NCBI RefSeq assembly: GCF_014640975.1
Contig: NZ_BMHO01000001.1
Location: forward strand, 1,684,166-1,748,165
Reading direction: 5' to 3'
DNA: 64,000 nt
Source of the DNA: Microbacterium faecale
GTDB taxonomy: Bacteria > Actinomycetota > Actinomycetes > Actinomycetales > Microbacteriaceae
A program made the translations under genes and the position numbers. The notes under the pieces are model-generated. The model was not told the origin of the DNA and made no database searches. It saw only the letters and a program-made list of their open reading frames with translations. This document shows positions 28,677-60,156 of this stretch, one piece after another (positions within the stretch are counted from its first letter, which is position 1; every line of letters begins with the position of its first letter).

Positions 28677-28750
28677 CCCCTCGTAGCCCAACCGGTAGAG
28701 GCGGCGAACTTAAAATTCGCACAGTGCGGGTTCGAATCCCGCCGGGGGGA
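28677..28750 (+). tRNA. tRNA with anticodon UAA (Leu codon UUA), short variable loop
   Basis: A complete cloverleaf can be drawn. The acceptor CCCCTCG/CGGGGGG has C1-G72 and one T-G pair. The D-arm GCC...GGC has the Leu-style AACCGGTAGA loop. The anticodon stem GCGAA/TTCGC encloses CTTAAAA, with TAA at 28711-28713. The variable region is only ACAGT, then the T-arm GCGGG-TTCGAAT-CCCGC and A73. CCA is not encoded. Length is 74 nt. The anticodon, D-loop and A73 point to leucine, but bacterial tRNA-Leu normally has a long variable arm, so identity should be confirmed. Confidence 0.85.
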
Positions 28751-56066: not shown

Positions 56067-56435
56067 ATGGGCGGTTTCTCTCTCGACAAGGTCATCATGA
56101 TCGCCGTGATCGCGGCTATCCTGATCGGCCCGGAGAGGCTGCCGCAGGCCGCGGAATGGCTGGGCCGCACGACGCGCCGGGTGCGCGACTATGCGCGGGG
56201 CGCCCGAACGCGCGTCGAGGAGGAGGTCGGCGACGACTTCGGCGAGGTCGACTGGACGAAACTGGATCCGCGCCAGTACGACCCGCGGCGCATCATCCGC
56301 GAGGCGCTCCTCGAGGACGACGCGCCCGCCGCCGCGCCCGCCGCCGCGGCCGTGCGCCCGCCGCGTACGTCACCGCTGATCGCACGGACGTTCTCTGCCG
56401 AGGATCCGCCCCCCTTCGACGACGAGGCGACGTAG
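56067..56435 (+). CDS. tatB: Sec-independent protein translocase subunit TatB
   Basis: TatB forms the Tat substrate receptor with TatC. The 122-residue protein has the short N-terminal membrane helix (VIMIAVIAAILIGPERLP, with the GPERLP hinge), an amphipathic helix (AAEWLGRTTRRVRDYARG) and a long, acidic then Ala/Pro-rich tail. Being single and longer than TatA supports TatB. It usually faces mrp; here a two-gene insert separates them. Confidence 0.9.
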   Translation: MGGFSLDKVIMIAVIAAILIGPERLPQAAEWLGRTTRRVRDYARGARTRVEEEVGDDFGEVDWTKLDPRQYDPRRIIREALLEDDAPAAAPAAAAVRPPRTSPLIARTFSAEDPPPFDDEAT

Positions 56436-56673
56436 CGGGTTTCGTCGTCTTCCGACTCGTCGTCGGTTCGCTGCGCGATCGCGTACGCGCGTCCGCGATC
56501 CCGAGGACCCGCTCCGCGGCTCCTCCCGCCAGACCCGAGCCAGCGGACGTGCGCACACGATCGCTTCGCTCCGTCGCAACGCAAGCATGCCTCTTGCGTC
56601 GGTCCCTGCGTTCTGTGCGGCAGTGCGACCGGTCATTTGCGTGGGACGGATGTGGGCCGGCTCGTGCGGGACC
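56436..56673. other. Gene-free junction after tatB
   Basis: The 238-bp gap contains no supported gene. It includes GCTTCGCTCCGT (56563-56574), which recurs in direct orientation at 58965-58976 beyond the MFS/recombinase genes. It may mark the left border of an insertion. Confidence 0.45.
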
Positions 56674-57930
56674 TTAACGTGGGTTCTCGGCCGCTTTCGA
56701 TATCTGCTCTGGTGCCGCGGTGCGTACGGGGCTACAGGCGAAGAAGACTCCGAACGCGATATAGCTAATCGCGAGCACAATCATCGCGCTGCGTGTTCCC
56801 AGGAACTCGCCCATTGTGCCGCCCAAGACGGCACCGACCGGGATCGTTGCCGCGTTGAGGACCTGCGAGACCGAGCTGATTCGCCCCTGGAGGTGCGGTG
56901 GTGTGTAGTGCAAGCGGAGGGTCATGAGCGCAACACCCCCGAGCGCGATCCCGAAGCTCACCGTAAAGGCGCCGATGGTGAAGAGGGCAAGGGAAGATGC
57001 AGACTGTGTCGCAGGCAGGAGCAACGACGCGGGGGATGTGAAGAGGAAGGTGAAGGTTGCTACCTTCCCCGCCTCATAGCGCCTGATGAGCTTGCCGCTG
57101 ATGAGCGCCGCGACCAATCCGCCGACACCACTCGCGGTGAGGATGAACCCGATGACGTCCGACGGGACATCGAGGTTTCGCGCGAGGTAAAGGATGTCCA
57201 ATGCTCCGCTGGCGGAGAGGAGCAGATTCGCGGTGGCGGCTCCTGCGGTGAGCCACGCAAGAACTCGGCTTGAGCGCAGGAGGTGCAGCCCTTCGCCGAT
57301 CTCGGTGGTGAGCCGCCTTCGGAGCGGCGGAGGGGGAGGGGCAACCTGGCTGACGATCGTGAGGAGCGCGATGGCACAGATGAGAAAGCACGCGGCGGTG
57401 ACGATCAGGGTATTTGCCGCGCCGATCAGCGCGACGAGAAGCCCCCCGATCGCAGGCCCGACGACTCGCGCGGTCGATCGTCCCGCCTGCATCGATCCAT
57501 TCGCTGCGGCGTATGTCGTCGACGGAACCAATTGGCGTAGGTATGGCGTGTAGGCGGACTGGAACATGGAGGTGAATATTCCGGTCGCGAAGGCCAGCAC
57601 AAGGAGTACCGAGGACGTCAGCAACCCCAGAAGCGCCGCAAGAGGGACCGCTCCGAGACTCGCCATGCGGCCGAAGTTCGCCGTAACGAGTATCGCGCGG
57701 CAGCGTCGTTGGCTTCGATCGACCAGAGCCCCCAGCAGGAGACCGAGGAAGGCGGCAGGCAACCACTGAAGTGCTTCCAGCAGTGCCACGGTGAATGTCG
57801 AGGCTTGCAGCTGCTCGATTGCGATCAGGGGGAGAGCGACAACCGCCACCATCGTGCCCGTCGCGCTGATGGTCTCTGCGAGAAGGAACGTGATGAAGGG
57901 CTTACCCAGCGTGCGTAACCCCGAACTCAC
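56674..57930 (-). CDS. MFS efflux transporter (DHA3/MefA-EntS type)
   Basis: This 418-residue exporter with about 12 helices begins LGKPFITFLLAETISATGTM, with LLGALVDRSQRRC as motif A. The order and length match the DHA3 group that includes macrolide and siderophore exporters; specificity is unknown. GTG 57930 overlaps the stop of the recombinase-like gene (GTGA), so the pump is made only after that protein. G+C and codon use look less extreme than in neighbours (many A/T-ending codons), suggesting transfer. Confidence 0.88.
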   Translation of the reverse strand: MSSGLRTLGKPFITFLLAETISATGTMVAVVALPLIAIEQLQASTFTVALLEALQWLPAAFLGLLLGALVDRSQRRCRAILVTANFGRMASLGAVPLAALLGLLTSSVLLVLAFATGIFTSMFQSAYTPYLRQLVPSTTYAAANGSMQAGRSTARVVGPAIGGLLVALIGAANTLIVTAACFLICAIALLTIVSQVAPPPPPLRRRLTTEIGEGLHLLRSSRVLAWLTAGAATANLLLSASGALDILYLARNLDVPSDVIGFILTASGVGGLVAALISGKLIRRYEAGKVATFTFLFTSPASLLLPATQSASSLALFTIGAFTVSFGIALGGVALMTLRLHYTPPHLQGRISSVSQVLNAATIPVGAVLGGTMGEFLGTRSAMIVLAISYIAFGVFFACSPVRTAAPEQISKAAENPR

Positions 57931-58829
57931 CCGACGCGCCGTTCCGAGGCGTCGAGCGTGCCGTCGGGCGCGGTCCTCCGGGCGTCGCGGCGTTCTTGCC
58001 ACGCACGGATCTCTGCGTCACTCTCCGCGTTCGAGAAAGAGACGTGGGTCCCTTCAAGTGCGCCGGCGGCTTGCCCGATACGCTCGCGGATGATCGCTTC
58101 CGGAACTCCGCCCGACACAAGGTCTGCTACGTGCGCGCGCCGGAGATCAGAGAGCTTCACGTCGACGCCCGCCTGTGAGCAGTACTGCGCCCATCGATGC
58201 TGGACTGACTGGTACCGTAGCGGCGTTTCTCGGCCCGATGCAGTGAAGAGTGGCCCGGACGGTGACGCCGTAAGGAGCAAGTAGTTGGTCAACCGGAGGT
58301 AGATCTGCCGATCGTCGACGAGTACGCGTCTCCGCTTGCCGCCCCACCCATCCACCGAGAGGGATGCGGACGACTCTTCGAAGTCCTCGACCCGGAGAGC
58401 TAAAGCCTCGCTCGGTCTGAGCCCGAGATGCGCGAGCAATCCGAACAACAGGTGATCACGATCCTCATGGAGAGGAATCATCGAGAACACCGCATCGATC
58501 TCCGACCTGAGTACTCGATGGGGTGGGCGTTCCGCCTCGCGATCGTTCGGTGGCTCGACCTCTCCATGAGTCGGCATGAGGATCATTCGATCGCAATGGC
58601 GAAGGAGCCCTCGAAGCGATGATGACCGACGCGCCCGTGTCGCGGTGGATCGACCTTTCGGCCAGGCGAGGTAGTCGCTAACTGCTTGCTCGTTGAGTGC
58701 GCCGCCATGCTTGGCCGCACACTCGACCAGCACGCTGAGATCCGAGGCATACCCCCGCAAGGTCGTCGCCCGACGTCCTGCATCACGCAAGTCATTCAGG
58801 TAAGACCGGACCGCTTCGTGTGCCTGCAT
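57927..58829 (-). CDS. Tyrosine-recombinase-fold protein lacking the catalytic Tyr
   Basis: This 300-residue protein has an N-terminal SAM-like core-binding domain (YLNDLRDAGRRATTLRGYAS) and a C-terminal phage-integrase domain with HLGLRPSEALALR (R138, E141) and GGKRRRV (K165). The HxxR box reads SDLR (S227, R230), the later His is Gln (IGQ, about 253), and the nucleophile Tyr position falls at H262/V263. It is therefore unlikely to cut DNA and may only bind it. It precedes and overlaps the MFS gene. Its promoter is embedded in a palindrome. Confidence 0.8.
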   Translation of the reverse strand: MQAHEAVRSYLNDLRDAGRRATTLRGYASDLSVLVECAAKHGGALNEQAVSDYLAWPKGRSTATRARRSSSLRGLLRHCDRMILMPTHGEVEPPNDREAERPPHRVLRSEIDAVFSMIPLHEDRDHLLFGLLAHLGLRPSEALALRVEDFEESSASLSVDGWGGKRRRVLVDDRQIYLRLTNYLLLTASPSGPLFTASGRETPLRYQSVQHRWAQYCSQAGVDVKLSDLRRAHVADLVSGGVPEAIIRERIGQAAGALEGTHVSFSNAESDAEIRAWQERRDARRTAPDGTLDASERRVG

Positions 58830-58831
58830 TC

Positions 58832-58864
58832 TGTGACAATATCAATTGACACAGGTTGTGTGAA
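58832..58864 (-). promoter_or_regulatory. Promoter with overlapping palindromes for the recombinase-MFS operon
   Basis: On the minus strand TTCACA (58864-58859), 17 bp, TATTGT (58841-58836) and 6 nt lead to the ATG at 58829: a near-ideal leaderless promoter. The dyad TGTGACAAT-ATCA-ATTGACACA (58832-58853, 8 of 9 arm matches) covers the -10 and spacer, and ACACA-GGT-TGTGT (58849-58861) reaches the -35. This is a strong candidate operator. Confidence 0.65.
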
Positions 58865-59022
58865 GACCCGCCGCGAGTCCGGAACTGACCGAACGCGGCC
58901 ATAGGCACGCGCGCGGCCTCGGGCAAGACCTGTAGCCCGTTGTCGTCTCGTTTTCGTCGCGACGGCTTCGCTCCGTGCGGGGTGTGACGTGGGCGCCGCT
59001 GCGCTCTGTTCTCTGCAGCCGC

Positions 59023-60156
59023 TCAGCGGGTGCTGACGGGCAGTTTGCGTCCTGCGAGGGATCCGCGCCCGCTCTCGACGACGCGATCCGCGAGCTGTTC
59101 GATCGCGACGGCCGACGGATCCTCGGGGTGTGAGACGACAACCGGTGTCCCGGCGTCCCCGTCCTCGCGGAGGGCCGGGCTGAGCGGCACCGACGCGAGC
59201 ACCTCGACGTCGTCGCCGAGGGCGCGCGCCACCTCAGCGCCGCCTCCCGAGCCGAACAGCTCCATGCTCGTGCCGTCGGGCAGCGTCATCGCGGCCATGT
59301 TCTCGACGACCCCGATGACCCGTTGTCCGACCTGTCGCGCCACGAGTCCGGAGCGGATGGCGACGTCGGATGCGGCCGCCTGCGGCGTCGTCACGACGAG
59401 CACCTCGGCACCGGGCATCAGATGACCCGCCGAGATCGCGATGTCGCCCGTTCCCGGCGGCATGTCGACGAGGAGCACGTCGAGGTCGCCGAAGAAGACG
59501 TCTGTGAGGAACTGCTGCAGCGTGCGGTGAAGCATCGGGCCGCGCCACATCACCGCGCCCGGGTTCGAACCGTCAGATTGCCGCAGGAACATTCCGATCG
59601 AGATCGTCTTCACGTCGTGGGCGATCGGCGGCAGGATCATGTCGCCGACCTGCGTGGGGGAGGGCGCCTCGCCGTCCTCCATCAGCCCCACCAGCTGCGG
59701 GATCGAAAATCCGTGGACGTCGGCGTCGATCAGACCGACCTTCAGGCCGCGGCGGGCGAGAGCGACCGCAAGGTTCGCGGTCACGGTGGATTTGCCCACG
59801 CCGCCCTTGCCGCTGGTGACGGTGATCACGCGCGTGAGCGTTCCCTCGCCGAACGGATTGCGCTTCTGTGGGCCGCGCAGCTTCTCCGTGAGCGCCTGCC
59901 GCTGCGCGGGCGACATCACGCCGACGTCGATCGTCGCGTGCCCGGCGCCCACGACGCTCTCGGCTGCCTCGCGCACGTCGCGTTCGATGCGGTCAGCTGC
60001 GGGGCAGCCGGCGATCGTCAGAGAGATGGCGACGGTCACGTCCTCGCCGGACGCGCTCACGCCCCGCACCATGTCGAGCTCGGAGAGCGGACGGCGCAGT
60101 TCCGGATCCATCACGCGCCCCACGGCCTCGGTTACGCGCCGCTCACGGTCCGTCAT
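59023..60156 (-). CDS. mrp: Mrp/ApbC-family iron-sulfur carrier ATPase
   Basis: This P-loop ATPase of the Mrp/NBP35 family is thought to carry or insert Fe-S clusters. The 377-residue protein has an N-terminal MIP18/DUF59 domain (about 1-90, VTEAVGRVMDPELRRPLSEL) and a deviant Walker A, VTSGKGGVGKSTVTANLA, plus VLLVDMPPGTGDIAIS. The C-terminal CxxC found in many Mrp proteins is absent: VVENMAAMTLPDGTSMELFG carries no Cys. ATG 60156 follows the upstream stop by 1 nt, so it is translated with DUF1003. It closes a three-gene leftward operon. Confidence 0.93.
   Translation of the reverse strand: MTDRERRVTEAVGRVMDPELRRPLSELDMVRGVSASGEDVTVAISLTIAGCPAADRIERDVREAAESVVGAGHATIDVGVMSPAQRQALTEKLRGPQKRNPFGEGTLTRVITVTSGKGGVGKSTVTANLAVALARRGLKVGLIDADVHGFSIPQLVGLMEDGEAPSPTQVGDMILPPIAHDVKTISIGMFLRQSDGSNPGAVMWRGPMLHRTLQQFLTDVFFGDLDVLLVDMPPGTGDIAISAGHLMPGAEVLVVTTPQAAASDVAIRSGLVARQVGQRVIGVVENMAAMTLPDGTSMELFGSGGGAEVARALGDDVEVLASVPLSPALREDGDAGTPVVVSHPEDPSAVAIEQLADRVVESGRGSLAGRKLPVSTR

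What the first reader, a model, noticed from the sequence alone, without database searches (positions are those of the whole stretch)
57927..58829. Degenerate tyrosine recombinase translationally coupled to an efflux pump
The recombinase-fold protein keeps one catalytic Arg (138), Lys (165) and the second Arg (230) but has Ser for the HxxR His, Gln for the later His, and no Tyr at the nucleophile position. Its stop overlaps the MFS start (GTGA), and its promoter is covered by a palindrome. A cleavage-dead recombinase used as a DNA-binding regulator of its partner pump would be a new kind of one-component efflux control. The regulatory role is inference; the residue losses and overlap are read from the sequence.
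Basis: partly seen in the sequence, partly recalled or inferred. Interest (0 to 1): 0.7.

Follow-up and report, generated by a model that had tools for sequence, protein, structure and literature searches.

The report
Dead DNA recombinase paired with pump
A DNA-cutting enzyme that has lost its cutting residues is kept beside a membrane pump in several related actinobacteria, and what looks like its old recombination site lies over the promoter of the pair, so it most likely works as the pump's own switch.

Summary

New here: relatives that keep Lys, late His and Tyr (plasmids of Deinococcus, Rhodococcus, Nocardia; one viral contig) carry a 12-6-12 core plus a half-site 76-78 bp on. A motif from ten half-sites of four plasmids, at that 6-bp spacing, finds the window palindrome as the best site in 64 kb, and the degenerate clade nests among these relatives. 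So the palindrome is most likely a recombination core site reduced to one dimer site, over the -10/start of a leaderless operon.

Best reading: a dedicated autorepressor of its operon. DNA binding, repression and any inducer are untested. Precedent: MrpR of prophage SPbeta. New variant of a known kind.

The parts
57927..58829 (-). 300-aa degenerate tyrosine recombinase, proposed autorepressor; first gene of the operon
56674..57930 (-). MFS transporter, 418 aa from the overlapping GTG; second gene of the operon
   Evidence: PF07690 and PF05977 above cut-off; TIGR00900 1e-53 but below its cut-off, no NCBIfam cut-off reached
57927..57930 (-). GTGA stop/start overlap (GTGA or ATGA in the four lineages)
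58828..58857 (.). core-like palindromic site in 12-6-12 register (symmetric unit 58831-58854), proposed operator
58836..58864 (-). promoter-like TTCACA-17-TATTGT; -10 ends 6 nt before ATG, suggesting a leaderless transcript
   Evidence: none of five Shine-Dalgarno-like motifs before the ATG in window and L013

Best explanation
The first gene makes a catalytically dead tyrosine recombinase descended from plasmid-borne, resolvase-like recombinases that have a two-armed core site upstream of their own gene. It kept DNA binding and lost DNA cleavage. Its core site now lies over the -10 box and start of a leaderless recombinase-pump transcript. The protein binds it as a dimer, one subunit per arm, blocks RNA polymerase, and so represses itself and the translationally coupled pump. 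It has one target per genome. Shown by sequence: fold (by prediction), residue losses, conserved pairing, overlap and palindrome, likeness of the palindrome to relatives' core sites, purifying selection. Inferred: binding, dimer geometry, repression, leaderless start, coupling. Unknown: what relieves repression (pump substrate, a partner protein, or simple negative feedback).
For: (1) K->W162, H->S/T227, H->Q253 and Tyr lost in 4 of 4 lineages; R138 and R230 kept in 4 of 4. (2) Pump adjacent with GTGA/ATGA overlap in 4 of 4. (3) Palindrome at the start codon in 4 of 4, arms conserved while flanks are not; unique in its own genome and in 4 of 4 further pair genomes apart from one 3-mismatch hit in G239. 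(4) A 12-6-12 core plus a half-site 76-78 bp on in six relatives: L006, L008, L009, L058, L060, L067. Five of the six have all six catalytic residues; L008 has Cys at the HxxR His. (5) Motif from 10 half-sites of four plasmids: window palindrome 20.1 bits, next best in 64 kb 11.7, 0 of 142,979 background positions reach it; 6-bp spacer best of 4-8 in all four lineages; column-shuffled motifs reach it in 7 of 20,000. (6) The two arms are the two best half-sites in the 450 bp round the start in three lineages and ranks 1 and 3 in L049. (7) Degenerate clade 100/100, nested among the site-bearing rows (96/94) if the root lies on the Xer-like side. (8) dN/dS 0.22-0.30. (9) Promoter-like site under the palindrome. 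(10) Precedents: MrpR; TnpI of Tn5401 modulates its genes by binding its promoter-bearing site (PMC7157771, passages).
Against: No binding, repression or transcript-start data. The recombinase is frame-broken by one base in G183 where the pump is intact: dispensable there, or a sequencing error. The motif from the Nocardia half-sites alone does not find the palindrome (rank 282). The sites of L004, L013 and L049 are matched or beaten by 2, 2 and 7 of 142,979 background positions. Identity to three Tyr-bearing relatives averages 32% and the branch to the degenerate clade is long (1.79). dS is near saturation, so dN/dS is rough. No ligand domain was seen.
Confidence: 0.72

Rival explanations
1. 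The pair is a small mobile element still moved by recombination at the palindrome, with a non-standard active site or another recombinase acting in trans.
For: The unit has different flanks in each lineage and DNA similarity to L013 and G183 starts at the palindrome. In the window its GC (63.0%) is below all 619 same-length stretches sampled. Relatives' core sites look like recombination sites.
Against: Four of six catalytic residues lost in 4 of 4 lineages. No second full site in the genome. Best half-site after the pump 5.9, within background (best per 450-bp block mean 4.6, sd 2.8). No accessory half-site above background.
Confidence: 0.08
2. The recombinase is a decaying passenger; the selected gene is the pump, and first-gene translation matters only for coupling.
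For: Frame break in G183 with an intact pump. Recombinase dN/dS is above the pump's in window-L013 (0.22 against 0.16) and in both pieces of window-G183 (0.33 and 0.19 against 0.18), though slightly below it in the two pairs with L049.
Against: dN/dS 0.22-0.30 at dS above 1, open frames in three of four lineages; many basic residues invariant in the three intact rows; palindrome conserved where flanks are not.
Confidence: 0.09
3. The palindrome is the operator of another regulator, or acts as RNA, and the dead recombinase does something else such as DNA bending.
For: The 35 nt can fold as an RNA hairpin (-10 kcal/mol, z -2.76, 4 of 200 shuffles as good).
Against: The hairpin would not be transcribed if the start is at the ATG (inference). 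Present once in its own genome, with no other target found. It matches the recombinase family's own half-sites and spacing.
Confidence: 0.1

Closest known systems
MrpR (YopR), master repressor of Bacillus prophage SPbeta (PMC10516654; passages read)
   Same: Tyrosine-recombinase fold, recombinase function lost, DNA-binding repressor.
   Different: MrpR keeps Tyr304 and Lys169, lost here, but lacks the first Arg kept here. MrpR binds repeated prophage elements; here there is one site, over a chromosomal pump operon.
SroF of phage phi3T (PDB titles of 9rd5 and 9rgl only)
TnpI and its IRS in Tn4430/Tn5401 (PMC7157771; passages read)
   Same: Site upstream of the recombinase gene with an inverted-repeat core and further half-sites; in Tn5401 the site holds promoters and TnpI binding modulates expression.
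   Different: No transposase in the unit, no accessory half-site, catalysis lost. Sequence relation to TnpI itself was not tested.
TnsF target selector of Tn6022-like Tn7 transposons (PMC10293859; passages read)
   Same: Inactivated tyrosine recombinase domain used for target DNA recognition.
   Different: TnsF selects transposition targets and has N-terminal zinc fingers.
TetR-type one-component regulators of efflux pumps (recalled)
   Same: Autoregulated operator over the promoter of a linked pump gene.
   Different: Unrelated fold; no inducer-binding domain recognised here.

Membership tests
Catalytic tyrosine recombinases | Core-binding plus catalytic domain fold | tested here: met
Catalytic tyrosine recombinases | R-K-H-R-H/W-Y active site | tested here: not met
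   Only the two Arg remain in 4 of 4 lineages (columns also)
TnpI/IRS-type resolvases | Inverted-repeat core upstream of the recombinase gene | tested here: met
   Core-like site in 4 of 4 lineages
TnpI/IRS-type resolvases | Accessory half-sites beside the core | tested here: not met
   Best other half-site in the 450 bp scores 3.5, 1.0, 6.7 and 4.3 (window, L013, L004, L049) against a background best-per-block mean of 4.6, sd 2.8; one weak 3.8 match lies 77 bp on in L004 only. Present in six relatives
TnpI/IRS-type resolvases | Linked Tn3-family transposase | tested here: not met
   The ORFs on either side are tatB-like and mrp-like by eye; no profile search was run on them
MrpR-type repressors | Recombinase fold with loss of catalytic residues | tested here: met
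MrpR-type repressors | Kinship to MrpR | tested here: inconclusive
   8A0A not among the sequence hits nor in the 50 rows shown by each PDB structure search
MrpR-type repressors | Prophage gene with many repeated binding sites | tested here: not met
   No tblastn match at 1e-5 in 50,697 phage records; one site in its own genome
MrpR-type repressors | Represses transcription by binding DNA | not testable with these tools
   Needs EMSA and reporter assays
MFS transporters | MFS profile above curated cut-off | tested here: met
   PF07690 118.4 bits against 33.4; substrate not assignable

The most novel reading that the evidence does not exclude
A plasmid resolvase lost catalysis and was domesticated, together with its own recombination core site reduced to one dimer site and placed on a promoter, as the dedicated one-component switch of an efflux pump, with derepression by pump substrates (for example DNA-binding drugs that displace it).
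Probability: 0.35. Interest if true: 0.78.

Novelty: new variant of a known kind. Interest (0 to 1): 0.63.

Why it matters
It gives a traceable path from a DNA-cutting enzyme to a transcriptional repressor in which enzyme and site appear to have been co-opted together: intact relatives with full sites survive, and the degenerate clade keeps the half-site geometry. It would extend recombinase-fold repressors from phages to a chromosomal transporter operon. It also warns that genes annotated 'integrase' next to transporters may be regulators.

Tried and rejected
Insertion-element reading: no second copy of the palindrome in the own genome at up to 3 mismatches; no half-site above background after the pump (460, 440, 271 and 270 bp were at hand). 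tRNA target: L013 has a tRNA-Gly after the pump, but the window's only tRNA is at 28677. Tn3 origin: two Deinococcus relatives lie near Tn3-family transposases, but L010 matches the query only from residue 31 and is probably truncated, so Tn3 membership is not claimed. The MFS gene near the recombinase of D. wulumuqiensis is not close kin of the window pump (28% over 173 aa, E 0.55). First structure job (3 sequences) was unusable (pLDDT 48.5). Viral scan with the degenerate alignment: 41 stretches matched, none a relative. Nocardia-only motif failed. Scripts failed through a naming bug. Absence of MrpR from the rows is no evidence that the folds differ. Literature: I saw titles and starts of abstracts of the papers listed (one search listed none; some lists were capped, e.g. 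15 of 18, 15 of 1,627, 10 of 56) and saw no recombinase-fold regulator of a transporter; passages of five papers were read. Most subscription journals are not held.

Full report
What is there. Window 57927-58829 (minus) encodes a 300-aa protein with the Phage_integrase and SAM-like domains, followed with a GTGA overlap by an MFS transporter at 56674-57930. A 24-bp palindrome at 58831-58854 lies between the -35 box and the ATG. The one promoter-like site found in 56400-59100 is TTCACA-17-TATTGT, whose -10 ends 6 nt before the ATG (0.4 expected in shuffles). None of five Shine-Dalgarno-like motifs precedes the ATG in the window or L013. That fits a leaderless transcript (common in actinobacteria, recalled).

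Active site. By the XerD alignment and the alignment with nearer relatives the six catalytic columns of the window protein are R138, W162, S227, R230, Q253 and H262. In the 34-row alignment columns 162, 165, 227, 253 and 262 are nearly invariant K, K, H, H, Y; that the first of the two lysines (GKGxK) is the catalytic one is recalled from XerD. The four lineages read W/W/W/W at 162, S/T/S/S at 227, Q/Q/Q/Q at 253, and H/F/P/A at the Tyr column, in the order window, L013, L049, L004, with no Tyr after R230. Of the 13 other homologues tabled (L005 duplicates L004 and was dropped), 13 have late His and Tyr, 12 have Lys (L052 has Asp), and 11 have the HxxR His (L008 Cys, L051 Tyr); 12 have the first Arg (L051 has a gap) and 13 the second. 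The matches in L051 and L052 contain an in-frame stop. L058, L060 and L067, checked apart, have all six.

Conservation of the pair. A scan of genome contigs gave two loci: L012, 98.6% identical to the window including flanks, and L013, Microbacterium maritypicum (63% protein identity). In the genus the pump occurs in 4 of 366 genomes at 1e-60: the window's own, G183, and G238/G239, which equal L013 over 4,248 bp; all four have the recombinase beside it. The recombinase occurs in 2 of 198 genus genomes at 1e-15; 3 of 398 family genomes at 1e-12, of which G600 (another genus) carries the pair and G605 is Xer-like with all six residues; 1 of 396 in the order at 1e-15; 5 of 296 in the class at 1e-15, the other four weak; 1 of 296 in the phylum at 1e-25; 1 of 5 in G600's genus. 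These samples overlap and each counts the window's own genome, excepted. So four lineages were found, all in the window's family (Microbacteriaceae, from L013's title), and 4 of 4 have pump, overlap and palindrome. G183's recombinase is frame-broken by one base.

Flanks. DNA similarity between lineages is confined to the unit: window to L013 and to G183 from the palindrome (58857) to within 50 bp of the pump's end, and G600 to the other three only inside the two genes. Of the 30 tatB-like loci, 17 relatives' loci were looked at for mrp and 13 of these: in those 13 the gap between matched parts is 8-291 bp. Of the other four, three show mrp further off and one has no mrp match. So the site is empty in those 13 relatives. 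The unit's GC is 63.0% against 69.3% for the window, lower than all 619 same-length stretches sampled, and 63.9% against 67.2% in L013, but 68.9% against 69.1% in G183 and 68.4% against 69.6% in G600. Horizontal gain is my inference for the window; GC supports it there and in L013 only.

Operator. In the four lineages 21 of the 28 columns before the start codon are invariant, against 0-2 of 28 in each of five upstream blocks and 34 of 90 in the first 90 nt of the gene. The site is unique in the own genome and, bar one 3-mismatch hit in G239, in four further pair genomes.

Origin of the operator. Upstream of the recombinase on Rhodococcus (L008), Deinococcus (L006) and Nocardia (L009, L058, L060) plasmids and on one viral contig (L067) lies a core of two 12-nt arms (10 to 12 of 12 alike) with 6 nt between, and a third half-site 76-78 bp further on towards the gene start. 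L007 has one half-site near its start and no core was recognised; none was recognised in L010 or L011. A weight matrix from 10 half-sites (L006 x3, L008 x3, L009 x3, L007 x1), scanned at the fixed 6-bp spacing, ranks the window palindrome first in 64 kb (20.1 bits, next 11.7), and 0 of 142,979 background positions reach it. In L004, L013 and L049 the site at -28/-29 is also the best in the 330 bp scanned, with 2, 2 and 7 background positions as good. Shuffled-column motifs do as well on the window site in 7 of 20,000 trials; without Nocardia in 4 of 20,000; the Nocardia motif alone fails (rank 282; 1,302 of 20,000). No third half-site and no half-site at the far end stand above background. In the tree the degenerate clade (100/100) nests among the site-bearing recombinases (96/94) on a long branch, if the root lies on the Xer-like side; two rows are partial. 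Read together (inference), the palindrome is a resolution core reduced to one dimer site that now straddles the -10 box.

Mechanism. Most likely a dedicated autorepressor. The protein binds its one site as a dimer, blocks the leaderless promoter, and thereby limits its own and the coupled pump's synthesis. The stretches most alike to three Tyr-bearing relatives include residues 194-213 with PLRYQSVQ (0.55 identity against 0.32 overall); its match to a DNA-contacting helix is recalled. What lifts repression is unknown. SroF has an antirepressor (PDB title), so a protein partner is as possible as a drug.

Known or new. MrpR is a published repressor with this fold and no recombinase activity, and its authors suggest that such recruitment is more widespread than thought (PMC10516654, passages). 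TnsF has an inactivated tyrosine recombinase domain and serves as a target selector (PMC10293859, passages). Control by a resolvase at its promoter-bearing site is known for TnpI of Tn5401 (PMC7157771, passages). Passages of a review on recruited mobile elements (PMC8987985) and of a tyrosine recombinase survey (PMC8138268) showed no such regulator. Nor did the titles and abstract starts listed; one search listed no paper. I file it as a new variant of a known kind.

Noticed in passing
L012 (DXDC01000228.1): A contig filed under a 'Candidatus Agrococcus pullicola' MAG is 98.6% identical to the window over its whole 3,771 bp, flanks included: mis-binned, or the same species as the window.
   Followed up: partly
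L006 3871-3977; L008 3833-3938; L009 3815-3922; L067 348-454: A shared resolution-site layout (12-6-12 core plus a half-site 76-78 bp on) in a family of recombinases on Deinococcus, Rhodococcus and Nocardia plasmids and a viral contig; I did not search whether this family has been described.
   Followed up: partly
L026, L033, L034: In three relatives the convergent tatB-mrp gap is larger than in the 13 measured, so this gap may be insertion-prone.
   Followed up: no
L004/L005 (genome G183): Recombinase frame broken by one base beside a run of C; real decay or sequencing error is undecided.
   Followed up: partly
L010 3674-4555: D. wulumuqiensis recombinase matches the query only from residue 31 and abuts a Tn3-family transposase: probably truncated by it.
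   Followed up: no
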